DNA of 64,000 nucleotides from Daphnia pulex (lineage: Eukaryota > Arthropoda > Branchiopoda > Diplostraca > Daphniidae): the NCBI RefSeq assembly GCF_021134715.1, contig NC_060019.1, positions 1,116,001-1,180,000 of the forward strand. The letters are read 5' to 3'. Numbering within the stretch: position 1 is the stretch's first letter; each line of letters opens with the position of its first letter. Positions 36,450 through 62,346 of this stretch are shown here, piece by piece. A program made the position numbers and the translations under genes. Below the pieces are notes generated by a model that did no database searches, was not told the DNA's origin, and worked only from the letters and a program-made list of their open reading frames with translations.

Positions 36450-36797
36450 TCAGCTGGAAAAATCCGTTGGCTCGGCAGAGCAGATGTCGATTGAAACAAC
36501 GTAGAGTTGTCCATCAGCGATTCCATTGCTGATAGGTTCAACCATAATCATTTCTGATTTGGTGGGTTTGGCTGCTGCTGGGATTAAATTGACTGGTTTC
36601 AATTCGTCGGTAGACAGTTCGCAGGCAGATAAAATAGTGACGGTAGAAATGGCGACTTCATCTTTGTTGGGTTCACTAAAGTCGGTTTTCATGCCTTTAC
36701 GACACCACAAAGAGCAGCGAATGGTGGTGGCCAAGTATGCAAATAACAGCAAGCAAACACAGGCGGCAAAGATGACAACAACGGCGATATCTTCCAT
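36450..36797 (-). CDS. small single-pass membrane protein, unknown function
   Basis: A single coding exon encodes 115 aa. Residues about 5-26 (VVVIFAACVCLLLFAYLA) form a strong hydrophobic segment, followed by basic and Cys residues (IRCSLWCRKGMK) that suggest a cytoplasmic side. The remaining 80 residues are acidic to neutral and low in known motifs. A splice acceptor just before the ATG (TTTGACATAG, near 36,809-36,818) and a donor near 36,860 indicate a spliced leader exon, which supports a real gene. It lacks the CPSY and PPxY motifs of the later family. I do not recognise it. Confidence 0.6.
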   Translation of the reverse strand: MEDIAVVVIFAACVCLLLFAYLATTIRCSLWCRKGMKTDFSEPNKDEVAISTVTILSACELSTDELKPVNLIPAAAKPTKSEMIMVEPISNGIADGQLYVVSIDICSAEPTDFSS

Positions 36798-40552: not shown

Positions 40553-42804
40553 ATGGCTAATTGTAATACGCTAATTTTTCTTTTCACTTTCTTTTGGCTG
40601 GCCATCGTCTTGGCCGAAAGTAAAAATAAAACTGCTGTGAGAATAGTCAAAAGGAAAATGAAAAAGGTTTCAAACAATCAGGAAACTTTCAAACAACAAA
40701 TTTTATTCGACGAGAAGATCTGGTGCTGCAAAAGTGGAACTACTTACCTGACAGGATTGGATCAGTGCGTGCCAAATTATGTCTCCACTTTGTACAACGA
40801 GTCGTTTCCAAATTATTCGTTCGAGGATGCAACCGACGGTTTGACTGATTGCCCGAATGAATACGTCAGTCACAGCACGGGAGATTTCAAACTGAACAAC
40901 GGCACCATACTGGTTAATGGCAAACGGTTTAAACAAAATGAATTCTGCATCAACAGAATCGAAGAAGAAAATTATTCAACATCCCCTGGCAAATTTGTGG
41001 CTCGTTATTGTGTTCCTGATCCTTGCGGTGAGTCGGGATGCATTCGGAAGTGTTGCCCTCCCGGCATGGCCATGGTCACGAAATATTATCACGATCTGTC
41101 TCCAATTTCAATATGTGAACCGCATCCTGTACCGTTTAATTTGTCACTTTTGCGTAACCCGAAAAATGAACCAATCGACGCAAATTCTTTTTCCACCCGT
41201 GGCGGACTCGGAATGAAATGCGGAAATCTTCCACGAGATTTTATTTTTGATTTTTCAATACGTCCCGATGGCCAGATTCTACTTCATTTAAAAAATCAAA
41301 CCGACGAGAAAACGGACCAGTATTGCATTGACAATCTGGTTGAAGGTGAAGACATTGTAAGGAAATTTTTTCTATTTATTAATTCATTTAATTTTCCGGA
41401 ATTCAGTTAAAAATTTGTTTTCAAAAGTTTAGTGCCTAATGATTATTTTTATTTTTCAAGAAATTAATGGCAATGGTGTGTTTTCCTGAGCAAGGAGAAG
41501 ATGCCAAAGGCGCGTATTTATTCGGATGTTTGAAAATTTTTGCCACGGTATTTCTGGTCGCCACCCTATTGGTTTATGCAATTCTCCCAAAAATGCGCAA
41601 CCTCCACGGCGTTATCGTCATGTGTTACTTGGCCTCCATGACAATCACGAACGTTTTTCATGCCATTCTGATGCTCGTGAAAGGCATTGATATGCCACCC
41701 GGTCTTTGTTCAACGTTAGGTAAATTAATTTGATTTCACTATTTACAATTCTTATAATGAATTACAATTTTCCCTGCAGGAATTTCATTGCATTTTGCCT
41801 ACATCGCCTCTTTTTCTTGGCTCAACGTCTTGTGCTACGGAGTTTGGCGGATGTTTATGTAAAATATGCGTTTCTCTTATTGACTCGGATTTCTCTGCGT
41901 GTTCTTAAACCACAATCAACTTTGCCTCACTTTATTTCAGTTCCATCAGATCACCGACAAACACATCCGTCTTGGGTAAACAGTTTTTCTATTCCTCCGT
42001 TTACGGATGGGGTATTCCATTCATTGTCGTGGTTGTCGGACAAATTCTCCAGCACAGCGATGTGTCAGACGACATCATTAAACCGGGACTGCCTTCAAAA
42101 TTGTACTGTTGGTTCAATCGTAAGTTGTACAGACATATTTCTATCATTCACCTGTATAACCAAATGTTTGAATTTTACTTTTTCATTACAAGATAAACAT
42201 AGAAGACCATTAATCGCCTATTTGTACGGCCCTATGATTGTCATGATTATTGCCAACGTTTTCATGTTCGTTTGGGCTGCGTTCAGTTTTTACCAGAGAA
42301 GTGTCGAATCATCGGAAGTGACCAAAGTTTCCCGTAAAAAACAAAGGTATTATTGGCTGCCGCAATTCAATCAAGAATTACATTTACGATTGCCAACTAA
42401 TCGTTAATGAATGTGTCACTTTTAATTGTAGATTTAAAGTGATCCTGAGTCTCTTCTTGTTGATGGGCGTTCCGTGGACAACCGAAATTATTACTTTTAT
42501 GGCGAATGCCAGTTTTGAAAGTGCCTTGTTCACCGACATATTCAACATCATTTTGCCAATTTTCATTTTCATCATCTTCGTTTGTAAGCCGTACGTGTGG
42601 AAGATGATGAAAATCAAATTCCCGCGCATGAGTCCGTTCATTTCGGCCTGTGAAAAATTGGTTTCCCGCATTCACCCCAATAGGAAAAGTAAACGTCAAC
42701 CGATCGCTACCGCTGACGAAAGCCAATCTTTCAACTCGAATAACACGACCGGCAGTAGCAGTAACAAAACTAGCTATCAGACTGAAATGACCACAATGAA
42801 ATAA
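40553..42804 (+). CDS. Methuselah-like GPCR, full length
   Basis: Methuselah-type receptors are secretin-family-related GPCRs of arthropods with a Cys-rich ectodomain and seven helices. Exons 40553-41356, 41461-41719, 41780-41858, 41941-42119, 42193-42346 and 42432-42804 give 615 aa. A signal peptide (about residues 1-22) precedes an ectodomain encoded entirely by exon 1, with CC pairs at IWCCKSG and CIRKCCPPG, the latter typical of the family, and several N-glycosylation sites. TM1 starts near residue 287. The intracellular tail ends TEMTTMK and lacks the ESTV end of the other copies. It is the only copy here with an ectodomain; ligand unknown. Confidence 0.93.
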
Positions 42805-43960
42805 TCGTCCTAGCTCTTATTACATGTCTGATGATCAACCAACAATTTGGTTTGAGTTGAAAGAAATCTCCTTGACTTAATGTAGTACAGCCTCTGATAC
42901 ATTTAACGCGATTTAACGTTTTTAAGCGTGCTCTTATGAGAATGATTGCACAAATAATTAATTCAAATACCTAATACTTTTTGCTTCAAATCGTTTAGAT
43001 GCCTTGCTATTACACAAACGGCAGGTCATGCAGAAGTTATCGTTTAATTATTGAATTGACTTAACTTAAATTGAATTGGCTTAATTTTAATTGAATTGGT
43101 TTAATTGAATTGGCTAAGTATTCTGTTAATTCGCCCCTGGATTACCAAATTGTTTCACTGGTGATGGCCCAATTGCTGTAAAATTAATGATTTATTGCTT
43201 CTCGTACTTTTACACGCGTTGTTATTATAATAACAACGCATATATGCTTTGAATTTCTTACACTGTTTAAAATGGAAACATTTATACCAGTTTTCTTAAA
43301 CTCTCCCGCAAAGATTACAATACAACATATGGACAATTTGTATGACAGAAATTCGATGGTTTAAATAAAAGTTCTTCCCGGAATGTAAAGATGATTAGGA
43401 ATGACGAGCTGAATTCCGGACTCATCCGCAGTCAGCATCTTTATAGCTCTCTGCCGGTGGATGGCGACTGTGTCGCACGTTCAATTTCCCACACACTTCC
43501 ATTATTTCTTAAAAGTAAAAATGCTGTACCTACCGCGTGGAAATGCGTACGTGCGTGAAAATGCGATGTTGAGATGCCGCAGGCCAATTTACCGCAAAAC
43601 TTTCTTTGGCATCTAAATCAATGGACACACCAGATAGGATTCGGGACAAAAAATTCCCCTTAGTGTTGCACCGTTCTCTAAACATCGAGCTAAACATTCA
43701 CCAGCAAGTGAACTCGTTCTGCAATGACCCACTTATTATACATTCCCCGTACACTAGTCACTAGTCCCATACACTCTCCGTTGATCTAAAAGGTTAACGC
43801 CGTTATTAAAAATAGTTAATTTGAAAAAAAAAGGTTCCTATGAATACATCTCTTATACATCAGTAGCTATAGGCCTGTTTTACTAGTATAAAGAATTGAA
43901 ATGCTGGACCAACCATAAATCAAACTTAAATTTGACGTAAAAATGAAATTAAAGGACGTC
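42805..43960. other. intergenic region after the full-length receptor
   Basis: No gene is evident. At 43,060-43,125 the motif TTAATTGAATTGG(C/T)T is repeated with small changes. Bases about 43,905-43,935 match 53,852-53,882 (the 3' flank of a PPxY gene), suggesting a PPxY gene once preceded the next receptor copy. Confidence 0.5.
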
Positions 43961-44238
43961 ACTATAGAATTAGAACGACAGAATATAACGAAATTATTAC
44001 TGACATTGTCGTGATCACGAAAGCCTGTGGGTCGATTTACAAATTCACACATCCTATGAAGTTTTGTTGGAATATCCAAATCAGACGTCTTATCAACAGG
44101 AAAACAACAAAACACGATGGATACACGGAAAAGGATATACTGGGGGTAGTATATGTTTTCAAGACTTATCCGAAGGAAACCATTGTTTGCTGGCTAATAA
44201 TAGGCAGACCACAATCGAATGATAATATTCTGAACTCT
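43961..44238 (+). promoter_or_regulatory. duplicated receptor upstream block, unit A
   Basis: This block (GTCGTGATCACGAAAGCCTG to the transposon end) has clear counterparts at about 54,145-54,400, 57,560-57,780 and 60,670-60,890, each 5' of a truncated receptor. Part of it also matches the upstream flank of the full-length receptor near 40,280-40,340. A 78-codon frame in it is not conserved, so regulation or leader sequence is more likely than coding. Confidence 0.6.
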
Positions 44239-45190
44239 CACTGTTAAAAATGTATTTTTTTTTCGACATTATGTATATGTCTAAAATAGAGATATGGTAA
44301 CGAAAAACGATAGCATATATCGTTTTTAAAATTTTCTGATATAAGTATTGCTAAAACTGTAATAATAAATTACGTAATAAGACATTTACGAGAAAGATAT
44401 ATTTTAAGGCCGAAAAATGATATAATATATTACAAAATGTGATACTTTTTTATGTCGAAATTAATCTGCGTATTAAAAACAATTTATTATAGTCAAATTT
44501 GTTATTAAAATGTACTATTTTCCGATATTTAAAAATGAAATCATATTCGTTAATATGAAATCTTTACTATTGATTTTTAAAAAAACAGATATTGATACTT
44601 TTATTTAATGAAATAAAACATTTATTAAGTACCGTTTCACAACAATCAAACATTACTTTAACTGGGACATAAATTCATAACCATATTATCTTATCGAGAA
44701 TCGTGAGTAGTTTAATAACCTGCCCTATAGAGCTGCCCCCAAATCACCAGAACAGATACATCAGAATCAAATTTACTATTTCAATTATCAAAGTAGCTCA
44801 GTGGTAGAGCAGTTGCCTGGAAAGCTTAAGTTCAATGGTTCAAGTCCCAACATCACCTTCCCTAATTTCTAAAATAAAACAATTGTCGAAGACATTACTT
44901 TCCCATAACTGATCGCCGCAAACAATATATTCAATAGCCGGACAATTCTGTGATACATATGTGTAATATAATTTTTTTTTGTATGGGTTACATGCATCTA
45001 TATTAACGGTAACAGGGATTTTAAAATGTTAATAAGAGAGATAATTAAAATATCATTTTTCAATAATTATGTAATACATTTTTAGGCATAACTATCGTTT
45101 TTTGAAAACAGTTATTTAAAAATGTCTTTCTGGCGGAAATCGGTTTTAGAGATTAAAAATATCGAAAAACGATATTCTTTTTTAACAGTG
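44239..45190. mobile_element. 952 bp non-autonomous transposon with 12 bp inverted ends
   Basis: The left end CACTGTTAAAAA and right end TTTTTAACAGTG are perfect 12 bp inverted repeats. The three paralogous blocks upstream of other receptor copies read through this point without an insert (CTGAACTACTCATTGG type), so this is an insertion judged by an empty site. The interior is AT-rich, has palindromic AAAACGAT/ATCGTTTT sequences and no transposase frame. The target duplication is not clear. The CAGTG-type end is compatible with hAT-like elements, but that is only a guess. Confidence 0.75.
44788..44866 (+). repeat. tRNA-like pseudogene inside the transposon
   Basis: TAGCTCAGTGGTAGAGC is an excellent box A and GGTTCAAGTCCC a good box B. 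The 3' acceptor strand CATCACC has no matching 5' strand and the anticodon stem does not pair. It is best read as a decayed tRNA or a tRNA-derived insertion. Confidence 0.45.
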
Positions 45191-45350: not shown

Positions 45351-46684
45351 ATGGAGTTTCTCATTGGATGTTTGACTCTCTTTGCTACGTTATTTTTGAT
45401 CGCAACTTTGATCGTTTATTCTATTCATGAAAAAATGCGCAACATCCACGCTGTGAACGTTATGTGTTTTTTGGTCTCATTGACCGTCATGAACATCTCT
45501 TTGGCTTTACGTTTTCTCGTTAAAGTCCTTGATATTCCGACCGGTCTTTGCTCTACAATAGGTAAATAATTTCGATTTCATTATACTCCATTTTAACCAA
45601 AAAAAATATGATTTAAAATGACAATTTTTTCCTCCAGCAATTTCACAGCATTTTGCCTTTATCGCCACTTATTCTTGGCTCAACGTCGTGTGCTTTGGAG
45701 TTTGGCGGATGTTTAGGTATACAAATCTATGACTTCTGTTTCACAGCTCTATTGATTCAGTTGCAGTTGTGAGTTTTTACCGGTTTTTACAACTAAATAG
45801 TTTTATCTCACTTTTTCCATCAGTTCCATTAGACCACCGAAACACACACCCATCTGGAGCAAACAGTTTTTCTATTCTTCCGCTTACGGATGGGGGATTC
45901 CGTTAGTCATCGTGGTCGTCGGACAAATCCTCCAACACTGCAATGTGCCAGATTACATCGTTAAACCGGGATTTGCGTCAGACGAATTGAACTGCTGGTT
46001 TGATCGTAAGTTACACAATAAATCTTTTTATTTACTTCTAAACAAATCGTCGATCTGTATAACTTCTTTATAGGTAAAGATAGAGAGCCATTAATTGCGT
46101 ATTTGTTCGGACCTTTAATTGTTATGATCGGAGCCAACTTTATCATGATTATTTGGGCTGGGATCAAATTTTGCCAGAGAAGCGTGGAATCGTCACAAGT
46201 GACCAACGTTTCCCGTAATAAACAAAGGTAGGCTATTACTTGATAGTTTGTCAATTTTATTCTCAGTTAAAATATAATCGTAAACTTGTACATATATTGC
46301 AGGTTTAAAGTGATCCTGATTCTCTTTTTGCTGATGTGTATGCCATGGTCAATTGGTATAATTATTTTCGTGGCGGGTATCAGTTTCGACTACCAGCAGG
46401 TTCACCAGGTTATGAGAATATTCAACATATTGTGGCCAATTTTCATTTTCATCATCTTCGTCTGTAAGCCGAGTGTGTGGAAGATGTTTAAACTCAAATT
46501 CCCGCGGATGAGTCCCTTCATCTCGAACTGTGAAGAACTGGGGTCAAAGATAATCTGTGTGAAAAGCAAACGTCAACCACTCGCTACTGATGAAGAAAAC
46601 CCATCTAAGTCGAATAACACGGTCGGCATTAGTGGCAAATTTACCCAAATTGGCTATCAACGCCATACCGAATCAACTGTCTGA
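45351..46684 (+). CDS. ectodomain-less Methuselah-like receptor, unit A (intact)
   Basis: Exons 45351-45561, 45638-45716, 45824-46005, 46074-46227 and 46303-46684 give 335 aa. They match exons 2-6 of the full-length receptor in order, phase and sequence (for example YGWGIPLVIVVVGQI, FCQRSVESSQVTNVSR and FIIFVCKPSVWKM). The start ATG lies just before TM1; upstream, the homologous exon 2 frame is closed by a stop, so no longer N-terminus is available. No ectodomain or signal peptide is present. The C-terminus ends HTESTV, a class I PDZ-ligand-like sequence. It may act as a ligand-independent or accessory receptor; alternatively it may be an expressed remnant. Confidence 0.82.
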
Positions 46685-49917: not shown

Positions 49918-50674
49918 ATGGATTTCAATAACACGTTCGTCATCATCACTAGTTCGTCTGGACAATTCAACGTCGTGCCAGGTCAGTGCTGTTCTTCAAC
50001 CCAACGTGTTTAAACTTTTCGTTTATAATCGTTGTTTGTTGTTGCCTTTATTATACAGCTCTTCCAACCAGAAGTCTCAACTATTTTCTCATCTGCCTGG
50101 CCTTTTTCATCTTCTGCCCACTGTTTTACATCTTGTGTCGCTTCGTCAAACTTCTGTGTTTTCCTGGAAGCGTTCCGGCGGATGCAACGGCACTTTCGGC
50201 TGCGGAGTCCGATGAAAACTCGGACATTGGCGTTTACGTGATTGACATAGATTTGATCCAAGGTTACATTAGGAATTCAGAAACGAGCAGCGATCGCCAA
50301 AATCACTATTGCTTCGCTTCGGCCACGCCTCGCGAAACTCGTCGACTTTCACCGAGCCAAATTCCTAAAACCTGTCCGTCCTATGGCGAACTGTACGACT
50401 TGGATAGCCGTAAGTGTTTCACTTGAAATTGTATGTCCCGTGCCAATAACGTTTTACCCTCATTTCTTTCACGCTTTGTCCTTGGCACACAGCGCCCCCA
50501 ACTTACGAGGAGTGGGAATCCAAGACTTTTTTAAACACGATTCCGCCAGCGACGGAATCAACTCCAGCCAGCAAAGCACCACCCAGTTTTTCTCGTTTGC
50601 AATTCGAACAATTGTACAGAAATTTAATTTATTTTGCCTTTTACATGTTTTATAGGCTCAAACGTTTCGTTTAA
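49918..50674 (+). CDS. single-pass CPSY/PPxY membrane protein 1
   Basis: Exons 49918-49981, 50059-50409 and 50493-50674 give 198 aa. A short N-terminus is followed by a strong membrane segment (about residues 29-50, FLICLAFFIFCPLFYILCRF) and a cytoplasmic-type tail. The tail carries TCPSYGELYDLDS at the end of exon 2 and PPPTYEEW at the start of exon 3, followed by a Pro/Ser/Thr-rich end. PPxY binds WW domains. The paired PSY and PPxY motifs recall Commissureless and PRRG4, sorting proteins that recruit Nedd4 ligases. I cannot assign it to either family by overall sequence. It is the first of a tandem family on this strand. Confidence 0.8.
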
Positions 50675-50992
50675 AAGTAATACATTTAGGCTATACTCTT
50701 ATTCATTCGTATATAATGATAATCGTAAGTATTAGACCTTACATTTTCTCCGCCGACCCAATAGCAGGAAACAATCATCTACTGGTGTATCTTCACGTCT
50801 TCGTGTGGTGCAACAGCGCGGGGAACTTTTGTTTCCCCCCTCAAGAAATGGATTTATGTCATCAGTTACATCTTCCCGTAGACGACCGAACTTTGCGGGA
50901 CCATTGGACTCCCATCCTCGGGTATATTTGCACGCAAGAGAACCTCGACCTGTTAGTCGTCTTCGTGAGGTGAGCAAGATTTAATATCCGAC

Positions 50993-51865
50993 ATGGAAGT
51001 GAAATTCAAAAGGGACTTAAAGTGGACCACATTTTATTTTATTTTAGGTAAGTCCAGCTTCGGATGTCTCTCATTTAATTGCAGACTTTAATATGTTTAA
51101 TCATATTAAGTTTAATTGAAACTATTGTTGCAGTGATTATTTTTGGTGGTCTTCTTCGTTTTTTCATACCTTTGAATATCCCATGGATCGTCATCTCCTC
51201 CAGCGCGGTTTTTTTTTCCTTCGCCGTAACTTGCTTAGCTAAGGCTTGCTTGGTGAAGCATCTTAAAACGGGGCAATTAGAAAACCAGTTCGCTTCTGAG
51301 ATTAACGAGTCCCTTTCAAATGATGTCATACCGAAACAAAATCAATCAACCTGTCCGTCTTACAACGATTTATTCGAGCTTGATAAGGGTAAGCACCTTT
51401 TTTTCTTTATCTTATCTTTTTATCTCATCTAAATTTTGACACATCTCCCGTCACAGAACCACCAAATTACGAAGAGTGCCAGGCCAAAAACGAAAGCAGT
51501 AACGCTGTCCCGGAGCAACCGCCACGTAAACAACGTGACCAGAGACAGAACGTCTATTTTGCCAAATTTTGGACAATTCTGGGTAATTCAAATGAAGCTT
51601 CGTCACCCGCTTTCGAGATAAAAGCCCCAGAAGAGTGCAACACCAACAACTGTAAGTTATTAACTATTTCCTTGAACTAACGGTCTTAATAAGTATCTTT
51701 CGTTTTGAATTTGTATCAGTACCTCCAATCTACGAAGAGTACCGGGCTAATGAAATTTCCATCGCTATTCCTGATGAGATGGCGATGAGAGAGACGGACG
51801 CCGACACTGCTGCTGTCCGTTCAGATGACACATACTCGGTCTTAATACTTCGTCTCGATATTTAA
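50993..51865 (+). CDS. CPSY/PPxY membrane protein 2, two hydrophobic segments
   Basis: Exons 50993-51047, 51134-51388, 51457-51651 and 51720-51865 give 216 aa. The start was chosen because its exon ends at a consensus GTAAGT donor and joins exon 2 in frame; the frame at 50,849 would hit a stop. Two hydrophobic stretches are likely membrane segments (around FYFILVIIFGGLLRFFI and IVISSSAVFFSFAVTCLA). The tail has TCPSYNDLFELDK, EPPNYEEC at the start of exon 3 and LPPIYEEY at the start of exon 4, so it carries two PPxY motifs. A decayed further exon pair lies just downstream. The role is inferred as for protein 1. Confidence 0.75.
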
Positions 51866-51869
51866 ACCT

Positions 51870-51995
51870 CCACGTCCTACACCAAATTATATTGAGCTTG
51901 ATAACCGTAAGCATTTTCCTTTTTTTTGCTTTTATACGTATTAAATGATTTAACTTTTGTAGTACGCAGAGCTTCCAACTTGTAGAAAGATACAA
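51870..51995 (+). pseudogene. relic of an extra PPxY exon pair
   Basis: Just past the stop of protein 2, a shifted frame reads PTPNYIELDN followed by a GTAAGC donor, like the CPSY...ELD exon ends. After a TTTTGTAG acceptor near 51,961, the bases CTTCCAACTTGTAGAAAG match the PPxYEE exon starts but with TGT AGA in place of the Tyr-Glu codons. The gene apparently once had one more motif exon, lost by frameshift and substitution. Confidence 0.55.
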
Positions 51996-52757
51996 TAACT
52001 TTAAGGAGAAATCCAATGTTTTCCGTATAAAAAGAATTTGGAAGCAGATCCCTCCAAAGAACTCCAAGACCAAAGAAAGATGCATTTCAACTTTGAATAT
52101 CCGGAACGTCGAGGATAAACGGCATGGATGGAAGAGACATTTGAAGTTCGGATTTGCCTTTCATTTTCGGCGCGGAATCGAAAACTTCCCCATAGCCCGT
52201 GGAGTGAATGCAAAATAACTGTAAGATGACAAATGGGAGAGAAATAAAAAGATAAGGACACATGCGCCTTCAAAGTTTTTGCGAAAGTGTCACGAAAACT
52301 GAAGTGGATCGTTCGTGTAATTTGCTGGAAACTGCAACCTGTACTAACCTGTAATCGACGTTTCATTTTAGAAGTTAGAGATCCTTTACCCGCCTTCAAA
52401 TTGCCTTCAACACCCAAATGGTAACTATCTCAAGACTATTTCCATCTTTTAACTAAATTATCGTTGCTATGCTAAAGAGTTAACCGATTCTTTAGAAGTG
52501 TATGCAGTTCTTTAAAAATGCGAACATTCGTTTTGACGTACGTGACATTCTTCTCCGTTCGTTATCTAGTCTCTTTTATCCTTTGACAGCTGCATGAATT
52601 TTAAAAAAGCAACAGCAAATAAGACGCACCGATTGGTACGACCTTGGATTGTAAGTTTCCACGTAAAAAATTTCCCTGGGTTTTTCCGTCAAGTCTGACC
52701 GTTTCTAGTTCGAAGCTGTTCATCGCGCTGTTCAACCTACTTTTTTTTACTGATTGA
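51996..52757. other. intergenic stretch between PPxY genes 2 and 3
   Basis: Minus-strand frames at 52,001-52,417 and 52,601-52,858 lack domains. No gene is supported. Confidence 0.4.
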
Positions 52758-53066
52758 ATGCTTATAATGATCTTTTCGACTTTCATATCAATGACTCTAT
52801 TTTCTTTTAAAAGATGTTTACGAGTGTGCTGTGTATGGGGGGGTAATAAGTGGGTCATCGAATTGCGAATTTATTTGCCTCGAAATTACACCGGATGGTG
52901 TAACGAAAAGGGGAATTTTTCCATCCCGAATCCTAGTGCCCACGTACCTGCCAGAGCAAGTTTCACGGTAAGTTTGCCTCCGGCAATACCTGAAACCGTT
53001 TTCACTTTTTAAGACACATCAACGTGAGAAACTAAACTTTTTCTTCAGTCGCCGTCAAGCATCTTC

Positions 53067-53800
53067 ATGAGCAGACCTGAAAGTGACGCTGATAGCAACG
53101 GCGCTAAGTCGGCTAACAACATGGACTCGAGTTCGCCATTCAAAATCTTTCACATCACCAAGTTCAACGATCATTCGTCAAATCAGTTAAATGAAGGAAA
53201 AGGTTGGTGGCTAATTTCATTTCAAACATTTATGCTGTGTATTGTTATTTTCTTATTCTATTCGTATTTTTAAATTACAGATGGAGAATATTCAAAGTTG
53301 ATGACGGGCACTGCTGTCACTTGCCTTGTTCTTCTATTGGTCATTTGTATTTTCTTGCCCTACTGCTATCATAAATGCGCATGCAGAAATGCTGGACGTG
53401 CGGATGCCCCTTCGCCGTTACTTCCCAAAGCAGCACGCTCATCCCTGTACTTCCTTACCGCCCCAGTCCTAGAATTCCATGAAAACGACATGGAAGGATT
53501 TTGGAATTCAGAATGTAACATCGAATTCGAACAATCGCCGGTAGTCTTTATCCCTGAGCCCGTTCAAGTTGCAATTTCAGAAACCTGCCCGTCTTACCGC
53601 GAAGCATTGGAGCTAAATAATCGTAAGCGCTTCCTTTATTAATTACAATTTTTATACACTGATGTAGAATATTCTAATTTGATGCAGCTCCTCCGACGTA
53701 CGAAGAATGCAAGAAGATTTTTTCTGCCGTTCCGGAAGTGATTCGAATCTCAACCGAAGTGACGGAAGCAATTTCAATGGACACGCCTACTCCTACGTAA
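53067..53800 (+). CDS. single-pass CPSY/PPxY membrane protein 3
   Basis: Exons 53067-53202, 53281-53622 and 53688-53800 give 196 aa. The membrane segment (AVTCLVLLLVICIFLPYCYH) is followed by a Cys-rich juxtamembrane stretch. The tail has FIPEPVQVA, TCPSYREALELNN at the end of exon 2 and PPPTYEEC at the start of exon 3. A possible upstream coding exon (about 52,758-52,967, ending at a GTAAGT donor) would join in frame to the exon starting near 53,050 and lengthen the N-terminus; I left it out because gene 4 does not share it. It pairs with the receptor copy at 54.5 kb. Confidence 0.78.
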
Positions 53801-54502
53801 CAAAATGGAACGTCTGCCGTGATCGAGGACTATTACGTCATGCGTGTCATACGGCCAACCATAAATCAAACTTGAATTTGACGTAATAATTCCCCACTTT
53901 TGTTTTCACTCTTTCATCCAGCTATTGTTATTAACAGTTCTCTTCACTCCTACCTAGCTTTAGCATAACATTCTGCTAAGAATAAGGTAACTAGCAAAAT
54001 GTGCAGTGTTGCTGGGGAGGCCTTTCTGCTGTATTATATGCATTACATTTTTTTTTTTGTGTTATTTCCTATTTCATTCATTCCGTTTGAAGTTAAACTA
54101 GGTCACTAGAATTAAAACGACCGATAATTTAAAGAAATTCTTTTAGGCGTTGTCGTGATTACCGAAGCCTGTGGTTCGGTTTACAAATTCACACATCGTT
54201 TTTGTATTTATAATTGATGCTATGTTGGGATATGCAAATCTAACGTCTTATCACACAGGAAAACAACAAAACACGATGGATACACGGAAAAGGATACTGG
54301 GTATATGTTTTCAAGACTTATCAGAAGGAAACCAATGTTTGGCTAAATTTATTCAGGCCACAACAGGCCACAATTAAAAGCCGATATTCTGAACTGCTCC
54401 TTGGCGGGAACCAAACGCTCAATTGCAGTCTAGGATTACCACACTCCGATTACATAGCTAACGCACGAATTTTCCTTTTTTCAATAGGCTAGTAGCATTT
54501 AG
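53801..54502 (+). promoter_or_regulatory. unit B: PPxY 3' flank and duplicated receptor upstream block
   Basis: The first part (with ACATTCTGCTAAGAATAAGG) matches the 3' flanks of PPxY gene 4 (57.38 kb) and the relic at 60.48 kb. The second part (about 54,145-54,400) is the receptor upstream block described for unit A. The order is the same in each unit. Confidence 0.6.
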
Positions 54503-55857
54503 ATGCTTTCCGAATCAAAAGAAAATTCTAAAATGGATTTCTTCCGTGGATGTTTGACTCTAATTGTCACGCCATTTTTGATCGCCACCTTATTCGTTTA
54601 TTCAATTCTACCAAAAATGCGCAACATCCACGGTGTGAACGTTATGTGTTTTTTGGCTTCGATGATCTTCATGAACATCTCTTTTGCCTTACGCTTGCTC
54701 ATTAAAATCATGCCACCCGGTGTTTGTACTATAATAGGTAAATTATTTCGATTTCACATTCCAATTTTGTTTTAAAAAAATTGAATATTTTTTTAATTAC
54801 AATTTTCTCCTGCAGCTATTTCACATCATTTTGCCTACATCGCCACTTTTTCTTGGCTCAACGTCTTGTGCTTTGGAGTTTGGCGGATGTTTAGGTATTT
54901 TCCCCTCCCCGTTTCTTTTACGGTTTCCCTGTTCCTTCATGATCCTATATTGAGTTTTCCAAATAATTTATTAGTTTATTAGTTGTTGTAACTGCTGGTT
55001 TTGTCTCGCTTTATTCTAGTTTCATTAGACCACCGAAACACACATCCGGTTTGGGTAAACGGTTTTTCTATTCCTCCCTTTACGGATGGGGTATTCCGTT
55101 GGTCATCGTGGTCGTCGGGCTAATCGTCCAGCACAGCGATGTGCCAGACTACATCATTAAACCGAGGCTTCCTTCAGGAATGTATTGCTGGTTTGATCGT
55201 AAGTTATGCGCACACATTTATATCATTCCTTTCTAAAGAAATCATTGAATTATAATACTAGATAAGTATAGAGGGTCAGTAATTGCGTATTTGTACGGAC
55301 CTTTAATTGCTATGATCGGAGCCAACAATATCATGATTGTTTGGGCTGGGATCAAGTTTTGCCAGAGAAGCGTGGAATCGTCGCAAGTGACCAACGTTTC
55401 CCGTAAAAAACAAAGGTATTACTTGTTTATAACACATCAATTTTATTCTCACTACCAATCTAATCGTAAATGAGTCGCCCAAATTGCAGGTTTAAAGTCA
55501 TCCTGATCTTTGTGTTGATGTGTCTACCGTGGTCAATACTCAATAGACATGATTTTTTTCATGGCGGCTATCAGTTTTAATCGCCTGGTTGTGGGCATAT
55601 TCAACGCATTGCTACCAATTTTCATTTTCATAATCTTAATCTGTAAGCCGAGCGTGTGGAAGATGCTCAAACTCAAATTCCCGCGTATGAGTCCCTTCTT
55701 CTCGACCTGTGAAAAACTGGGGTCAAAGATAGTCTGTAAGAAAAGCAAACATCAACCACTCGTTGCTGTTGAAGAAAACTCATCTAATTCGAATAACACG
55801 ACCGGAATTAATAAAATTGGCTATCAACATCCTGCCAAAGACGAATCGACGGTCTAA
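54503..55857 (+). pseudogene. ectodomain-less Methuselah-like receptor, unit B (frameshifted)
   Basis: Exons 54503-54737, 54816-54894, 55020-55198, 55262-55415 and 55490-55857 correspond to exons 2-6 of the full-length receptor. The last exon contains TCAATACTCAATAG where relatives have one TCAATAG-like unit. This 7 bp tandem duplication shifts the frame within TM6 and leads to a stop soon after. A second frame resumes and ends in ESTV. Upstream of the ATG a 1 bp loss has also broken the homologous exon 2 frame. It is probably a young pseudogene unless another start or splice form is used. Confidence 0.75.
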
Positions 55858-56882
55858 AACAATCTTCTGTGAAATGTGAAACACAATTCCGATTGAAATG
55901 GAATAAGACATCATTAATTGCGTATAGCTTTTGATTAGATTACTACGCTATATTTTTCGTAAAATTAATATTTTCGTACTCGTAGGTAGTTTCTTGAAAG
56001 GCGAGGATAAAAAATGTTTTTTTTTTTCTGAACATTACGTGTTACCTGACCTAACCTAACAAAGGTGCTATGAAGTTGTTTCACTCAACTGTAGATGTCA
56101 CTATTGTCATATAAACAAATCCAAGCAGACGAAAGTCAGCACTCGGCAGTGCCCTGCAATGTGTTTGCAAAGTTTACACGTGGTTCAGGAAGTCATCAAG
56201 TCAAGTACAGAATAGTTTATCAAATTAAAACCATATAAAAATAAGTAATTTGTGGTTCTTTTGTGATTGTGTGTACAACCTTTTTGTGGATACAAAGAAT
56301 GTTGCATTATGATTGAATTCTTCACACTAAGCCGTGGTTGTTTGTTCAATAGCTTGTGTCTTCTTACTGGTCAATAATTGTATTTGGTAACCACATGCAA
56401 AACATATTATTGTATTCCATAGAGAGAAGTGATCTAAACCTTTGTTTTCCACCTATATTACTGTATTGTAAGAAGTTTTATGTTCGGGAATACTTGATGT
56501 AAAGAGTTATAAGTTAGTAACAATTGTTTCAGCAGCAAGCAAATATTTCCCTGTTAATATTGATGAGAAAAGAGAACACAAGTTTCATGAACAGACTTGA
56601 AAGTGACATTAAAAGTGACTAAGGCCGCTAACATGGACTGCAGTTTCACTATTAACAATAATATCTTTTACATTGTCACCAATGATCATTCGCCAAACCA
56701 TGCAGCTAAACAAAGGTATGTGACTGATTTGTAATATCATACCTATAATCACTTTACAACGGTTAAAAAAAGTTGTTACCAGTTGCCGATTTTACTTTTT
56801 ACGTTTACAATATTTATATGTGTACTGTTTTCTTATTCTATTCGTATTTTATTTTATTACAGATGGAGGATATTCAAAGTTA
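55858..56882. promoter_or_regulatory. 5' region of PPxY gene 4 with a broken first exon
   Basis: Bases 56,584-56,715 are homologous to exon 1 of gene 3 (ATGAACAGACTTGAAAGTGAC against ATGAGCAGACCTGAAAGTGAC is the pattern), but a stop codon follows after 11 codons and the spacing has changed. Bases 56,060-56,180 recur at about 60,080-60,190, marking the unit's 5' end. The rest is AT-rich. Confidence 0.55.
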
Positions 56883-57342
56883 ATGGCAGGTACTGCTGTC
56901 ACTTGCCTTGTTCTTCTATTGGTCATTTGTATTTTCTTGCCCTACTGCTATCATAAATGCGCATGCACAAAAGCTGGATGTGCGGATGCCCCTTCGCCGT
57001 TACTTCCCAGAGCACCACATCCATCCCTGTACTTCCTTTCTGCCCCAGTCCTGGTATTCCAACACAACGATATTGCAGGATATTGGAACTCAGAATATAA
57101 CATCGCATTCGAACGTGCCCCGGTAGACTTCATCCCTGAGCCCGTTCAAGTTGCAATTGCAGAAACCTGCCCATCCTATCACGATGCATTGGAGCTAAAT
57201 AATCGTAAGCGCTGCCTTTATTAATTACAATTTTCATACACTGATGTAGAATATTGATATTTGGACTTTGATATTTTATGCAGCTCCTCCAACGTACGAA
57301 GAATGCCAGCGCAAGGGATTTTTGCTGCTGTTCCGGAAGTGA
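56883..57342 (+). CDS. CPSY/PPxY membrane protein 4, shortened
   Basis: Because exon 1 is broken, I start at the ATG at the head of the membrane exon; exons 56883-57204 and 57284-57342 then give 126 aa. The membrane segment is the same as in protein 3, and could act as a signal anchor. The tail keeps TCPSYHDALELNN and PPPTYEEC, but a frameshift after the PPxY motif cuts the end to a short KGFLLLFRK. Either it is a shortened but working motif protein or a decaying copy. It pairs with the intact receptor at 57.9 kb. Confidence 0.6.
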
Positions 57343-57914
57343 TTCGCCTAGCTCTCAACCGAAGCACCTTGCTTGACCAAAACATTCTGCTAAGAATAAG
57401 GTACAAGTAAAGCATGCAGTATTGCTCTGGGGTCGTTCTGCTGTATTATATGCATTACATTTTCGTTGTGTTGTTTCCCATTTCATTCATTCCGTTTGAA
57501 TGAAGGTAGCTGTCATTAGAATTAGAACAACCAATAATTTAACGAAATTCTTATAGGCATTGTCGTGATTACGGAAGCCTGTGGGTGGGCGTAAAATCTA
57601 ACACATCCTAAAATGACGCTCTGTTGGGATATCCAAATCAAACGTCTTATCAACCGGAAAACAACGAAATAGGACTACACGTGAAAGAGTATACTGGTAT
57701 TTTTCAAGACTTCTCAGAAGGAAACCATTGTTTTGCTAATAATATAGAAATGCCACTATTCTGAACTACTCATTGGCGGGCACCAACCGCTCACTTCCGG
57801 CCTAAGACACCACATTCCCATAGCTATATACGCCTTAATATATTTTTTGTTATTTCCATAGTCTCAAATAGTAGCGCTTATAGATGTTTACCGGGACAAA
57901 GTGGAAAGTCTAAG
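57343..57914 (+). promoter_or_regulatory. unit C: PPxY 3' flank and duplicated receptor upstream block
   Basis: The block at about 57,560-57,780 matches those of the other units. At 57,856-57,861 a TTTCCATAG acceptor precedes 53 bp that are open in the receptor frame and match the start of exon 2 of the full-length gene (CLPGQSGKSKM against CFPEQGEDAKG). The exon 2 boundary therefore survives although no ectodomain exon is nearby. Confidence 0.6.
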
Positions 57915-59242
57915 ATGGAGTTTCTCCTTGGATGTTTTACTCTCTTTGCTTCGTTATTTTTGATCGCAACTTTGATCGTTTATTCTCTTCTAGAAAAAAT
58001 ACGAAATATCCACGGTGTGATTGTTATGTGTTTTTTGGCCTCCCTTACCGTCATGAACATCTCCTGCTCCATTCGTCGCTTGCTCATTGGAATCCCGTCG
58101 ACCGGTCTTTGCCTTACGATTGGTAAATCCTTTCGATTTCATTAATCAATTCTAACAACAGAAAATATGTTTTAAAATTATTTTTCCACTTTTTTCTTCC
58201 AGCAATTTCACAGCATTTTTCCTTTATCGCCACTTATTCTTGGCTCAACGTCGTGTGCTTTGGAGTTTGGCGGATGTTTCGGTATAAATCTATAATTCTT
58301 TTTTTTACTGAGTTTTTTCAACTAAATAGTTTTGTCTCGCTTTATTCAAGTACCGTCTCACTGCCTACTCATAAACCCATCTGGGGCAAACAGTTTTTCT
58401 ATTCTTCCGTTTACGGATGGGGTATTCCGTTGGTCATCGTGGTCGTCGGGCAAATCGTCCAAAACTGTGATGTGCCAGACTACATCATCAAACCAGGACT
58501 GGCTTCAAAAATGTATTGCTGGTTTGATCGTAAGTTAAACACACACTTCTTCATTTCCCTCTAAACTAGAACTATATAACTTCTTCTTGATCTTTTTATT
58601 TCTCTCTAAACAAATCGTTAATCTATATAACTTCTTTATTACACTAGGTGAGGATAGAGAACCAAAAAATGTGTATTTGTACGGACCTATAGTTGCCATG
58701 GTCGGAGCAAACTATATCATGATTATTTGGGCTGGGATCAAATTTTGCCAGAGAAGCGTGGAATCGTCACAAGTGACCAACGTTTCCCGTAATAAACAAA
58801 GGTATTACTTGATAGCATGTAAATTGTATTCTCAGTTACAATCTAATCGTAAATGTGCGCATATAATTGCAGGTTTAAAGTGATCCTGAATCTCTTTTTG
58901 TTAATGTGTATGCCCTGGTCAGTAGGCGTAATTGTTTGCGTGGCGGGTAACAATATCGACTACGAGATTTTGAGAACATCCAACATACTGTGGCCAATTT
59001 TCATTTTCATCATCTTCGTCTGTAAGCCGAGCGTGTGGAAGATGCTGAAATTGAAATTCCCGTGGATTAGTCCCTTCCTCTCGACTTGTGAAAAATTGGG
59101 GTCAAAGATAATCTGTATGAAAAGCAAACATCAACCACTCGTTACTGTTACAAGGAACCAATTGAACTCGATTAACATGGCTGGCATTAGTGGTAAGTTT
59201 ACCCAAATTGGCTATCAACGCCATACTGAATCGACGGTCTGA
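57915..59242 (+). CDS. ectodomain-less Methuselah-like receptor, unit C (intact)
   Basis: Exons 57915-58122, 58203-58281, 58351-58529, 58648-58801 and 58873-59242 give 329 aa with no frame breaks. Seven hydrophobic segments and the family blocks (HGVIVMCFLASLTVMNIS, YGWGIPLVIVVVGQIVQ, FIIFVCKPSVWKMLKLKFPW) are present. It starts just before TM1, has no signal peptide and no ectodomain, and ends HTESTV. If an upstream exon in phase existed, the frame could extend 18 codons further 5'. With the unit A copy it is one of two intact truncated receptors. Confidence 0.82.
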
Positions 59243-59479
59243 AACAAACATGCGTCTAACTACCTCCACCTGTGATATACACAAAAAATTCCGTAATAAC
59301 GATGAATATATAATACGATTATCTATGAGAATGTTGTTGTGAAAAGTGGATATTGATTTGAAAACAACAAGTTTAATGCAATAAATAATGGAAAAGTTTT
59401 ATCCTTATTCCTTAATCATTTTATAATGAGTAGCAACACATTTCGGCCCCCGGTTTAAAAGAACAATTTTTTCTTCCAG

Positions 59480-59914
59480 CTATTTCACAGCATTTTGTTT
59501 ATATCGCCACTCTTATTCTTGGCTCAACGTCGTGTGATGCGGAGTTTGGCGGATGCTGACGTATAAATCTTCCCGTACTACTTACCCGTACTAATCAAAG
59601 GTATTACTTGTTAACACGTCAATTTCATTCTCAGTTAAAATCTAATCGTAAATGTGCGCATATAATTGCAGGTTTAAAGTGATCCTAGGTCTCTTTGTGT
59701 TGATGTGTCTGCCGTGGTCAATAGGCATGATTTGTTTCATGGCGGGTATCATAAAACTGATACCCGCCATGAAACAAATCGCCTGGTTACGGGCATATTC
59801 AACACATTGTGTTACCACATTTGATTTTCATAATCTTAATCTGTAATAAGCCGAGCGTGTGGAAGATATGCTCAAATTCAAATTCCCGCGTATGAGTCCG
59901 AATCGACGGTCTAA
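59480..59914 (+). pseudogene. fragment of a Methuselah-like receptor
   Basis: Only the equivalents of exon 3 (about 59,480-59,562, with a TGA inside), the very end of exon 5 and exon 6 (from about 59,672) remain; the others are deleted. Exon 6 is interrupted by an inverted duplication at 59,729-59,780 and a large gap before the ESTV-stop end (59,900-59,914). It cannot encode a receptor. Confidence 0.85.
59729..59780. repeat. 23 bp perfect palindrome with 6 nt spacer
   Basis: Bases 59,729-59,751 are repeated exactly in inverted orientation at 59,758-59,780, separated by TAAAAC. The left arm is normal receptor exon sequence (…CATGGCGGGTATCA) and the right arm is its inverted copy, so the palindrome arose by local inverted duplication in this pseudogene. 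Confidence 0.9.
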
Positions 59915-60039
59915 AACAATCTTCTGTGAACTGTGAAACACAATTCCGATTGAAATGGAATAAGTCTTATTCTATATTATTTTATCGCATATAACTTTCG
60001 ATTAGATTATTATACGCTACTTTCGTAAAATTAGGCGAG

Positions 60040-60440
60040 GATACAAATGTCTTTGCTGTCACCTGTTTATCTTGGTTAGCAAACATAGGTGCTTTGAAGT
60101 TGTTTCACTCAAACATAGATGTCACTCTTGTTATGTAAACAAACCAACCAAACGAAGTTGGCCAGTGCCCTGCAATGTGTTTGCAATGTTTATTCACGTG
60201 TTATTATCAAGTACAGATTAGTTTAACGAATTCAAACTATACAAAAGTAAGCAATTTGTGGTTTCTTTGTGATTTTGTTAAAATCTTTTTGTTGACACAA
60301 AGAATATGTTGCATTATAAATCCTTCACACAAAATGACAAAAGCCCAATTATTAGAATTATGTGTTTTTTGTTCAATAGCTTTTACGTTTCAATTTCAAT
60401 CGACACGCCTTCTCCTACGTTACTACGTAGCATGATGTAA
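60040..60440 (+). pseudogene. PPxY gene relic, coding region deleted
   Basis: The first part matches the 5' flank of PPxY gene 4 (CAGTGCCCTGCAATGTGTTTG, GTTGTTTCACTCAA) up to TTGTTCAATAGCTT. It then runs straight into bases matching the last codons of PPxY gene 3 (CAATTTCAAT(G/C)GACACGCC). About 1 kb, including the membrane and motif exons, has been lost. Confidence 0.7.
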
Positions 60441-61014
60441 TACGTAATTGTTATAACATCTCTTCGCTCCTAGCTTGACCAAAACATTCTACAAGGAATA
60501 ATAAGTTAACAAGCAAAACATGCAGTATTGCTGGAGGGTCATTCTACTGTATTATAGGTATTAATGCATTACATAATTTTCATTTTGTTATTTCCCATTT
60601 CACTCATTCTGTTTGAAATTAAACAGGTCACAAGAATTAGAACAGCCGATAATTTAACGAAATTCTTACAGGCAATGTTGTGATTATGGAAGCCTGTGGG
60701 TCGGCTTACAAACTAACATATCCTGTGACGCTCTGCTGGGATATCCAAATCAAACGTCTTATCAACAGAAAATCAACAAAATACGTCTAGGCTTATACCG
60801 GGTATGCTTTCGAGACTTGTCAGAAGGAAACCAAAGTTTGGCGCCACAATCAAATGATTATATTCTGAATTACTCCTTGGCGCGCACCAACCGCTCAATT
60901 GCGGTATAGGACAACACATTCCAATAGCTATGTACGCCTTAATAAATTTTTTGATTTCCAGTCTCATATAGTAGTGCTCATAGCTGTTTACCAGAACAAG
61001 GTGGAAAGTCTAAG
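60441..61014 (+). promoter_or_regulatory. unit D: PPxY 3' flank and duplicated receptor upstream block
   Basis: Same order as units B and C: a PPxY 3' flank (ACATTCTACAAGGAATAATA), then the receptor upstream block (about 60,670-60,890), then a TTTCCAG acceptor at 60,955-60,961 followed by an open frame (CLPEQGGKSKM) running into the receptor ATG. Confidence 0.6.
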
Positions 61015-62346
61015 ATGGAGTTTCTCATTGGATATTTTACTATCTTTGCTACGTTATTTTTGATCGCAACTTTGACCGTTTATTTTATTCTTGAAAAAAT
61101 ACGAAATATCCACGGTGTTAACGTTATGTGTTTTTTGGCCTCCCTCACCGTCATGAACATCTCCTGCTCTATTCGCTTGGGAGATAAAGAGTGGGAGGGG
61201 TGAATCGTCACACTCGTTAAAGTCCTTGATATGCCGACCGGTCTTTGCCCTACGATTGGTAAATCCTTTCGATTTCATTAATCAATTCTTACAACAGAAA
61301 ATATGTTTTTAAATGACAAATTTTTTTCCTTTAGCAATTTCACTGCATTTTTCCTTTATCGCCACTTACTCTTGGCTCAACGTCTTGTGCTTTGGAGTTT
61401 GGCGGATGTTTAGGTACAAATCTATATAACTTCTGTTTCACAGCGCTGCTGATTTAATTGCAGTTGTGAGTTTTTACAACTAAATAGTTTTGTCTCACTT
61501 TTTCCAGTTCCATCAGATCACCGACAAACACATCCGACTTGGGTAAACCGTTTTTCTGTTCTTCCGTTTACGGATGGGGTATTCCGTTGGTCATCGTGGT
61601 CGTCGGACAAATCCTCACCACACTGCGATGTGCCAGATTACATCATTCAACCGGGATTTGCATCCTACTGTTGGTTTGATCGTAAGTTACACAAATCTTT
61701 TTATTTCCTTCTCAACAAATCGTTGATCTGTATGAATTCTTAATTACACTAGCACAGGAAAGAGAGCCATTAATTGCGTATTTGTACGGACCTCTAATTG
61801 CCATGATTGGAGCAAACTATATCGTGATTATCTGGGGTGGTATTAAGTTTTGCCAAAGAAGTGTCGAATCGTCGCAGGTGACCAATGTTTCCCGTAAAAA
61901 ACAAAGGTATTACTTGTAAGCATGGCAATTTCATTCTCAGTTACAATCTAATCGTAAACTTGCACATAAATTGCAGGTTTAAAGTGATCCTGAGTCTCTT
62001 TTTGCTAATGTGTATGCCCTGGTCAGTAGGCGTAATTGTTTTCATGGCGGTTAACAGTTTGAACTACAAGATTATGAGAATATTCAACATACTGTGGGCA
62101 ATTTTCATTTTCATCATCTTCGTCTGTAAGCCGAGCGTGTGGAAGCTGCTCAAACTCAAGTTCCCGTGGATTAGTCCCTTCCTCTCGACTTGTGAAAAAC
62201 TCGGGTCAAAGATAATCTGTTTGAAAAGCGAACATCAACCACTCGTTACTGATGAAGAAAAACCATCTAACTCGAAGAACACGGCCGGCATTAGCGGTAA
62301 GTTTACCCAAATTGGCTATCAACGCCATACCGAATCGACGGTCTGA
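61015..62346 (+). pseudogene. ectodomain-less Methuselah-like receptor, unit D (broken)
   Basis: All five exons are recognisable (exon starts near 61015, 61335, 61507, 61753 and 61978). The first contains an in-frame TGA within an inserted GGGAGATAAAGAGTGGGAGG-like stretch near 61,180-61,215. The third has a 1 bp gain (CCTCACCACACTG against CCTCCAACACTG) that shifts frame, plus a 9 bp-class loss near its end. The last exon is open and ends HTESTV. It is probably a pseudogene. Confidence 0.8.

What the first reader, a model, noticed from the sequence alone, without database searches (positions are those of the whole stretch)
49918..62346. Co-duplicated gene pair: CPSY/PPxY membrane protein plus ectodomain-less Methuselah receptor
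Units B, C and D each show the same order: PPxY gene (or relic), its 3' flank, a conserved receptor upstream block, then the receptor. Unit A keeps a trace of the PPxY 3' flank (about 43,905-43,935). Two unrelated membrane-protein families thus travel as one duplicating unit. PPxY motifs recruit Nedd4-type ligases, which control receptor sorting. That makes a functional pair (adaptor with GPCR) plausible, though hitch-hiking in a tandem duplication would look the same.
Basis: partly seen in the sequence, partly recalled or inferred. Interest (0 to 1): 0.8.

Follow-up and report, generated by a model that had tools for sequence, protein, structure and literature searches.

The report
Tandem-duplicated receptor and neighbour gene
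A small membrane-protein gene was copied along with a neighbouring, shortened cell-surface receptor gene several times in a row, but every copied pair has since lost or damaged at least one of its two genes, so it looks more like a passenger in a duplication than a working pair.

Summary
Units B and C have the order PPxY gene, flank, receptor leader, receptor; D keeps 30 bases of the PPxY gene's last exon and A 32 bases of its 3' flank. A working pair is not supported. No unit keeps both frames undamaged. The "receptor upstream block" is the 5' leader of full-length relatives (E 1.5e-16, 8.9e-15), so the short receptors are an exon deletion and the PPxY gene was the next gene upstream. Of 13 receptor copies in two arrays, only RB and RC have a PPxY gene directly upstream; P1 and P2 have no receptor directly downstream. 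Hitch-hiking in a tandem duplication fits best.

One result points the other way: the second array, 39-70 kb beyond the window, also has a PPxY membrane gene (T1), once, 4.4 kb upstream of its outermost copy. So the neighbourhood, though not the pair, may be older than units A-D.

By-product: PPTYEE occurs at eight places in the genome; five lie within 101 kb here (an alpha-arrestin, P1, PB, PC, T1) and two more follow alpha-arrestin matches. The membrane proteins may have captured an arrestin-type Nedd4-binding tail.

The parts
37905..39435 (-). Intact alpha-arrestin (ARRDC-type) gene, 7 exons, 368 aa; last exon PPPTYEEC behind a phase-1 intron
   Evidence: Model; Pfam Arrestin_N 2.4e-23 and Arrestin_C 1.4e-24; PDB relatives TXNIP and ARRDC3
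40188..40453 (+). 5' leader of R0, homologous to the 'receptor upstream block' of units A-D
   Evidence: nhmmer with a profile of the four blocks: E 8.9e-15
40553..42804 (+). R0: full-length receptor with Cys-rich ectodomain exon and 7tm_2 domain; 6 exons, 615 aa, frame intact; no PPxY gene upstream
   Evidence: Model; PF00002 E 1e-15; tblastn map
43909..43940 (+). Unit A: trace of PPxY 3' flank
   Evidence: 31/32 identical to 53855-53886, E 1.5e-11; 0 of 100 shuffles
43902..44239 (+). Unit A: receptor leader block
44239..45190 (.). Non-autonomous DNA-transposon-like insertion (terminal inverted repeat CACTGTTAAAAA) between A's leader and receptor
   Evidence: TIR arms; 15 matching pieces genome-wide including itself, two further full-length copies on C8 at 96%; not present at the matching place of S5 (read)
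45351..46684 (+). RA: ectodomain-less receptor, 5 exons, 335 aa, frame intact
   Evidence: PF00002 E 1.3e-15
49918..50674 (+). P1: CPSY/PPxY membrane protein, 198 aa, one hydrophobic segment, frame intact; next gene downstream is P2, not a receptor
51079..51900 (+). P2: CPSY/PPxY gene with repeated PPxYEE exons (PPNYEEC, PPIYEEY); 5' exon not determined
53121..53800 (+). PB: PPxY gene of unit B, 3 exons, 178 aa, frame intact
54060..54532 (+). Unit B receptor leader block
54533..55857 (+). RB: ectodomain-less receptor with a 7-base insertion in the last exon; frame lost in TM6, no TM7
   Evidence: Length not a multiple of 3, stops follow; alignment
56633..57340 (+). PC: PPxY gene of unit C; with PB-like splicing exon 1 is out of frame with exon 2, C-terminal tail frameshifted and shortened; TM-CPSY-PPTYEEC core open
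57470..57914 (+). Unit C receptor leader block
57915..59242 (+). RC: ectodomain-less receptor, 329 aa, frame intact
59454..59899 (+). RF: broken receptor fragment (pieces of two exons) with a 52-base self-inverted repeat
60391..60420 (+). Unit D: relic of PPxY exon 3
   Evidence: 28/30 identical to 53769-53798, E 2.9e-8; 0 of 100 shuffles
60586..61014 (+). Unit D receptor leader block
61015..62346 (+). RD: ectodomain-less receptor pseudogene (33-base insertion with in-frame TGA in exon 1, 1-base insertion in exon 3)

Best explanation
This is a tandem duplication of a genomic segment that happened to contain two neighbouring genes. A full-length Methuselah-like receptor gene lost its ectodomain exon by an internal deletion but kept its 5' leader. 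A PPxY membrane-protein gene lay just upstream. The segment was duplicated to give units A-D and the fragment RF. The units decayed separately: PPxY lost in A and D, receptor broken in B and D, PPxY damaged in C. An ectodomain-less receptor resembling A was also copied, without its PPxY neighbour, into a second receptor array 39-70 kb beyond the window (S5). Shown: shared order, relics, decay, leader homology, S5 chimera. Inferred: the order of events and that the pairing is neutral. The PPxY proteins probably recruit Nedd4-type ligases through their PY motifs, as Comm and alpha-arrestins do, but nothing ties them to these receptors.
For: Order, spacing and relics. Frames: PB and RA and RC intact; RB, RD, PC damaged. 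Leader block homologous to the 5' leader of full-length S2 (E 1.5e-16) and R0 (E 8.9e-15). Tree: RA, RB, RC, RD, S5 form one clade (local support 1.000) placed with S2/S7 (0.981). S5 is 92% identical to RA over 1365 columns, but in the last alignment block 98% to S6 against 64% to RA. P1, P2 and PB proteins have no tblastn match in C3:1180001-1270000 at E<=0.01, so array-2 copies S1-S6 have no like PPxY gene beside them. PB/PC dS is 0.19 against 0.38 for RB/RC (fraction 0.01 of 2000 bootstrap draws the other way), so the two genes of the pair do not share one simple history.
Against: A diverged PPxY membrane gene, T1 (C3:1254272-1254972, minus strand, 152 aa, frame intact), lies 4.4 kb upstream of S7, the outermost array-2 copy, with two other small open frames between. 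PPxY genes thus stand on the 5' side of receptors in both arrays, so linkage may be older than units A-D. RA/RC dN/dS is 0.54 (95% 0.38-0.81; 0.43 by another alignment), so some short receptors were constrained. PC keeps an open core, so unit C could still make both proteins. Pairing in trans is not excluded. Frameshifts rest on one assembly. No other species was available.
Confidence: 0.8

Rival explanations
1. A co-adapted gene pair: the PPxY protein is a Nedd4 adaptor for the receptor beside it, and selection duplicated and kept them together.
For: Same order in B and C; T1 beside the second array; PY motifs of the type that recruits Nedd4 ligases (Comm: passages of PMC12101832; ARRDC3/4 with the beta2-adrenergic receptor: passages of PMC10945707); unit C could still make both.
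Against: No unit keeps both frames undamaged; 11 of 13 receptor copies have no PPxY gene directly upstream; S5 keeps an open frame without one; PPxY core and receptor of B and C differ in divergence.
Confidence: 0.08
2. The locus is a loose functional neighbourhood: PPxY membrane proteins (and perhaps the alpha-arrestin) act in trans on receptors of both arrays, without one-to-one pairing.
For: P1 and PB and T1 have intact frames; PPxY membrane genes lie on the 5' side of both arrays; an intact alpha-arrestin with the same tail motif lies beside R0.
Against: No interaction or expression evidence; PY membrane proteins could serve many cargoes; PB/PC constraint is unclear (dN/dS 0.55, 95% 0.28-1.15); both arrays could have inherited the neighbourhood by one segmental duplication.
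Confidence: 0.18
3. The ectodomain-less receptors are only pseudogenes on the way out.
For: RB, RD and RF are broken; dN/dS of seven pairs within the ectodomain-less clade (0.36-0.54) tends to exceed that of seven pairs of R0 and array-2 copies (0.19-0.37).
Against: RA, RC and S5 keep open frames and splice sites; RA/RC dN/dS has upper bound 0.81.
Confidence: 0.35

Closest known systems
Methuselah/Methuselah-like class B GPCRs (lineage expansions, including Daphnia)
   Same: 7tm_2 domain; Cys-rich ectodomain in R0 and array 2; tandem expansion; ectodomain gain and a Daphnia pulex expansion are in print (PMC4768249, parts 1 and 2 of 3 read)
   Different: R0's ectodomain gives no PF06652 match at E<=10; RA-RD and S5 have no ectodomain, by inference through deletion of one exon
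Commissureless (Comm) and similar short PY-motif membrane adaptors of Nedd4
   Same: Short membrane protein with PY-type motifs; Comm has PPCY 220-223 and LPSY 229-232 (passages of PMC12101832)
   Different: Motif order reversed in P1, P2, PB, PC (CPSY first, then PPxY, starts 13 residues apart in PB); T1 has no CPSY; no homology test to Comm was run; cargo unknown
Alpha-arrestins (ARRDC/ART)
   Same: PPTYEE tail exon with the same phase-1 junction in the window arrestin and the C7 arrestin tail as in P1, PB, PC and T1
   Different: P1 and PB have a TM segment and no arrestin domain match
LITAF-like membrane proteins
   Same: Weak Pfam match of PB over the TM region (E 0.055)
   Different: Below the curated cut-off (14.1 against 23.8 bits)

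Membership tests
Methuselah/Mthl receptors | 7tm_2 (PF00002) domain | tested here: met
   R0 E 1e-15, RA E 1.3e-15, over the cut-off
Methuselah/Mthl receptors | Methuselah_N ectodomain (PF06652) | tested here: not met
   No match for R0 at E<=10. PMC4768249 says some accepted Mthl members also lack it, so the family is set by the 7TM tree
Methuselah/Mthl receptors | Place in the Mthl clade of a 7TM tree with fly receptors | not tested
Tandem segmental duplication | Repeated units with shared order, homologous flanks and regular spacing | tested here: met
Selected co-linear gene pair | Both members intact in the retained units | tested here: not met
   No unit of A-D has both frames undamaged
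Selected co-linear gene pair | Same linkage at other copies in this genome | tested here: inconclusive
   Absent beside R0 and S1-S6; a diverged PPxY gene, T1, lies 4.4 kb upstream of S7
Selected co-linear gene pair | Linkage conserved across species | not testable with these tools
   The genome search states this genome has no relatives here
Nedd4 PY membrane adaptor (Comm-like) | Short membrane protein with PY-type motifs on one side | tested here: met
   One hydrophobic segment in PB and in P1, with CPSY and PPTY after it; membrane topology not tested
Nedd4 PY membrane adaptor (Comm-like) | Binds Nedd4 and delivers a receptor cargo | not testable with these tools
   Needs biochemistry
Alpha-arrestin | Arrestin_N and Arrestin_C domains | tested here: not met
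   P1 and PB have none; the neighbour gene at 37.9-39.4 kb has both

The most novel reading that the evidence does not exclude
The PPxY genes are newly born membrane-anchored 'mini-arrestins'. Short TM genes captured the Nedd4-recruiting tail exon of an alpha-arrestin, most likely the one about 12 kb from P1, inside a neighbourhood of Methuselah-like GPCR arrays. The new adaptors regulate receptors of both arrays, including a lineage that lost its ectodomain by exon deletion and may signal without ligand. The tail capture alone I put at about 0.5; the whole module is given below.
Probability: 0.12. Interest if true: 0.7.

Novelty: new member of a known kind. Interest (0 to 1): 0.37.

Why it matters
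As posed, the finding is most likely an ordinary tandem duplication with a passenger gene, and shows how suggestive such pairs look before decay and outgroup copies are checked. Three by-products are worth keeping. An ectodomain-less GPCR lineage arose by deleting one exon while keeping the leader, and spread ectopically into a second array. An alpha-arrestin tail exon may have been captured by membrane-protein genes. And such PPxY membrane genes stand on the 5' side of both receptor arrays, which makes the neighbourhood worth testing in other Daphnia genomes.

Tried and rejected
Upstream block as a decayed ectodomain: a tblastn of R0's ectodomain gave a tempting 30% match in A (E 0.31), but a profile of 11 ectodomains scored the four blocks at 1.2 bits or less. 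Rejected in favour of a receptor leader.

tRNA in A's insertion: looked tRNA-like by eye; ARAGORN (bacterial code) found none.

CPSY half of the tail also from alpha-arrestin: the last 45 bases of the arrestin exon against the P exon ends were only weakly better than splice-donor-like controls (48, 57, 105 and 124 of 2000 for the window arrestin; 682, 500, 558 and 206 of 2000 for the C7 arrestin). Not supported.

One search had listed a PPTYEE frame at C3:1254559, and searches show a membrane-protein gene there (T1). Dropped. A regular expression meant to list PPxY frames was wrong and printed nothing; one search has the right one.

'PPTYEE only in five places': true only with the following TG in the pattern. 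Without it there are eight.

Relatives in other collections: viral contigs with R0's ectodomain and genome contigs with PB exon 2 gave no confirmed relative.

Papers: searches. In those listings I saw nothing on this PPxY family or on ectodomain-less Daphnia Mth receptors; subscription papers are mostly not held.
Full report
Setting. The window is G000:C3:1116001-1180000 of a 133.2 Mb genome in 13 contigs. No tool named the organism. Size and contig count fit Daphnia pulex as I recall it; that is recall, not a test. No relatives of this genome are held, so the cross-species test could not be run.

The observation. Self-comparison and gene models find the receptor in five copies plus a fragment: R0 (40553-42804), RA (45351-46684), RB (54533-55857), RC (57915-59242), RF (59454-59899, broken) and RD (61015-62346). 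R0 has a Cys-rich ectodomain exon; RA-RD start at TM1. RA and R0 match 7tm_2 (E 1.3e-15 and 1e-15). PPxY genes in the window are P1, P2, PB and PC. PB and PC stand upstream of RB and RC in the same order. D keeps 30 bases of PPxY exon 3, and A keeps 32 bases of its 3' flank; none of 100 plain shuffles of either leader gave a hit at E<=1e-4. D's leader also carries the receptor 3' flank seen after RB (72% over 504 columns), as expected if D is a further tandem copy.

What the conserved upstream block is. A profile of the four blocks, searched in 164 kb around the window and in 80 kb of other fetched stretches, finds two strong matches outside units A-D and the ectodomain-less S5: the 5' leader of full-length receptor S2 (C3:1227396-1227110, minus strand, E 1.5e-16) and that of R0 (window 40188-40453, E 8.9e-15). 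It is therefore the receptor's own leader, promoter or 5' UTR, not a link between the two families. A profile of 11 ectodomains does not match the blocks (best 1.2 bits). The short receptors thus most likely come from a full-length gene that lost its ectodomain exon and kept its leader. In the tree RA, RB, RC, RD and S5 form one clade (local support 1.000) placed with S2 and S7 (0.981), so one deletion can explain all of them.

State of the pairs. Unit A: RA intact, PPxY gone, and a 952-base transposon-like insertion separates leader and receptor (44239-45190). Unit B: PB intact; RB carries a 7-base insertion in its last exon and loses frame in TM6. Unit C: RC intact from the ATG at 57915. With PB-like splicing, PC exon 1 is out of frame with exon 2, and its tail is frameshifted and shortened, but the exon-2 frame with TM and CPSY and the PPTYEEC motif stay open. 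Unit D: PPxY deleted; RD has a 33-base insertion with an in-frame TGA and a 1-base insertion in exon 3. No unit keeps both frames undamaged.

Do the two genes of a unit share one history? PB and PC are 88.6% identical in exon 2, 90.8% in intron 2 and 88.9% in the aligned part of exon 3, but 60.5% in the 5' part with exon 1 and 71.8% in intron 1. The receptors, leaders and flanks of B and C are 67-82% identical. Synonymous divergence is 0.19 (95% 0.10-0.32) for PB/PC exon 2 and 0.38 (0.28-0.49) for RB/RC; a fraction 0.01 of 2000 bootstrap draws puts the first at or above the second. The PPxY core was therefore probably converted, or copied later, independently of the receptor.

The second array. 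C3:1219295-1249890 (minus strand) holds seven copies, S1-S7. S1-S4 and S6 have the ectodomain exon, S7 is partial or decayed, and S5 is ectodomain-less. S5 is 92% identical to RA over 1365 columns, but in the last alignment block it is 98% identical to S6 against 64% to RA. It is a chimera, best explained by ectopic conversion or exchange from an RA-like donor. S5's frame is open (spliced translation; stop read from the sequence), A's transposon is not there, and homology to the leader starts only at its last third. P1, P2 and PB proteins find nothing in C3:1180001-1270000 at E<=0.01. P DNA finds one 25-base hit of P1, far from the receptors, and the leader block one 27-base hit, which is S2's leader.

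A result against my reading. A motif scan had listed a PPTYEE frame at C3:1254559, minus strand. It lies 4.4 kb upstream of S7 on the same strand, with two further small one-TM open frames between (start codons at C3:1252993 and 1251723; 49% identical to each other over 51 aa). Its similarity to the P proteins is carried by the tail (E 0.012 to PB, 0.017 to P1 and 0.096 to P2 in a three-sequence comparison). So both arrays have PPxY membrane genes on their 5' side. T1 stands once beside seven receptors, next to a decayed one, so it does not make a pair per unit; but the linkage of the two kinds of gene may be older than units A-D, either by function or because both arrays descend from one segment. 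Of the 13 receptor-like copies, two (RB, RC) have a PPxY gene directly upstream.

PPxY family size. Protein searches with PB exon 2, P1 and the P2 TM exon found only window loci with significance; the weak others were 1 hit at E 0.02 for PB, 5 at E 0.16 or more for P1, none for P2. These searches missed T1, and P1 and PB did not find each other there, so they give a lower bound. Compared directly, P1, P2 and PB share the CPSY-PPxY tail (E 4e-10 to 4e-8, three-sequence comparison).

Selection. RA/RC dN/dS is 0.54 (95% 0.38-0.81) on R0-anchored codons and 0.43 with a pairwise alignment. I computed 18 of 66 pairs: seven within the ectodomain-less clade, including broken copies, run 0.36-0.54; seven among R0 and array-2 copies run 0.19-0.37; four of R0 with RA-RD run 0.35-0.40. 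The ectodomain-less lineage has been constrained, though probably less. PB/PC exon 2 gives 0.55 (0.28-1.15), which does not decide.

The alpha-arrestin link. On the other strand at 37905-39435 lies an intact alpha-arrestin gene (368 aa; Arrestin_N 2.4e-23, Arrestin_C 1.4e-24; PDB relatives TXNIP and ARRDC3). Its last exon starts, after a phase-1 intron, with PPPTYEEC. P1, PB and PC have the same junction and motif (PPPTYEEW in P1). All seven PPxYE frames in the 164 kb around the window follow an AG with two bases between, that is, the same phase. The pattern for PPTYEE (CCNCCNACNTAYGARGAR) matches eight places in 133 Mb, its reversed control one: this arrestin, P1, PB, PC and T1 within 101 kb; C7:4053951 and C10:16215358, which follow Arrestin_C matches by about 620 and 290 bases; and C3:13241178, not examined. 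The C7 tail shares phase and motif. With a following TG the pattern matches five. Cautions: the pattern was chosen after seeing the motif, P2's variant exons escape it, and the CPSY half gives no support. I take common origin of this exon as about even odds; convergence on a short functional motif is the alternative.

Function. PY motifs recruit Nedd4-type ligases. Comm uses two of them to bring Nedd4 to Robo1 (passages of PMC12101832), and ARRDC3/4 recruit NEDD4 to the beta2-adrenergic receptor (passages of PMC10945707). The P proteins plausibly work like these (inferred). That their cargo is the neighbouring receptor has no evidence here.

Verdict. A real co-duplication, best read as hitch-hiking with later decay and conversion, inside a neighbourhood where PPxY membrane genes flank both receptor arrays. 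Confidence in the best explanation was lowered from 0.85 to 0.80, and the rivals and interest raised slightly, because of T1.

Noticed in passing
window 37905-39435 (-): Intact alpha-arrestin gene whose PPPTYEEC tail exon and phase-1 junction match those of PPxY membrane genes 12-19 kb away.
   Followed up: partly
   Followed up: partly
G000:C3:1252664-1252993 and 1251412-1251723 (-), locus L043: Two related small one-TM open frames (49% identical over 51 aa) between T1 and the second array.
   Followed up: partly
G000:C3:1219295-1249890 (-), 39-70 kb beyond the window: Second array of seven related receptors; S5 (about 1239521-1240838) is an ectodomain-less chimera, RA-like in front and array-2-like at the 3' end.
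   Followed up: yes
window 44239-45190: Transposon-like insertion with CACTGTTAAAAA terminal inverted repeats; two further full-length copies on C8 at 96% and partial ones.
   Followed up: partly
window 47406-47735 (+): THAP-domain reading frame (PF05485 E 8.5e-13) between RA and P1, followed by a second open frame to 48498; possibly a P-element-type transposase remnant (recalled association).
   Followed up: partly
window 36450-36797 (-): Single-exon open frame for a 115-aa one-TM protein just downstream of the alpha-arrestin; no Pfam match at E<=1, weak genome hits on C7 (E 0.0016) and C8 (E 0.0075).
   Followed up: partly
window 51456-51900 (+): P2 repeats its PPxYEE exon (PPNYEEC, then PPIYEEY), followed by a CPSY-like exon remnant: the PY tail seems to be a duplicating exon module.
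   Followed up: no
G000:C10:11946561-11946686 (-): Weak PB match (33% over 42 aa, E 0.02, one stop) about 47 kb from 7tm_2 matches at C10:11993365-12000630.
   Followed up: no
window 59729-59780: 52-base self-inverted repeat inside the broken receptor fragment RF.
   Followed up: no
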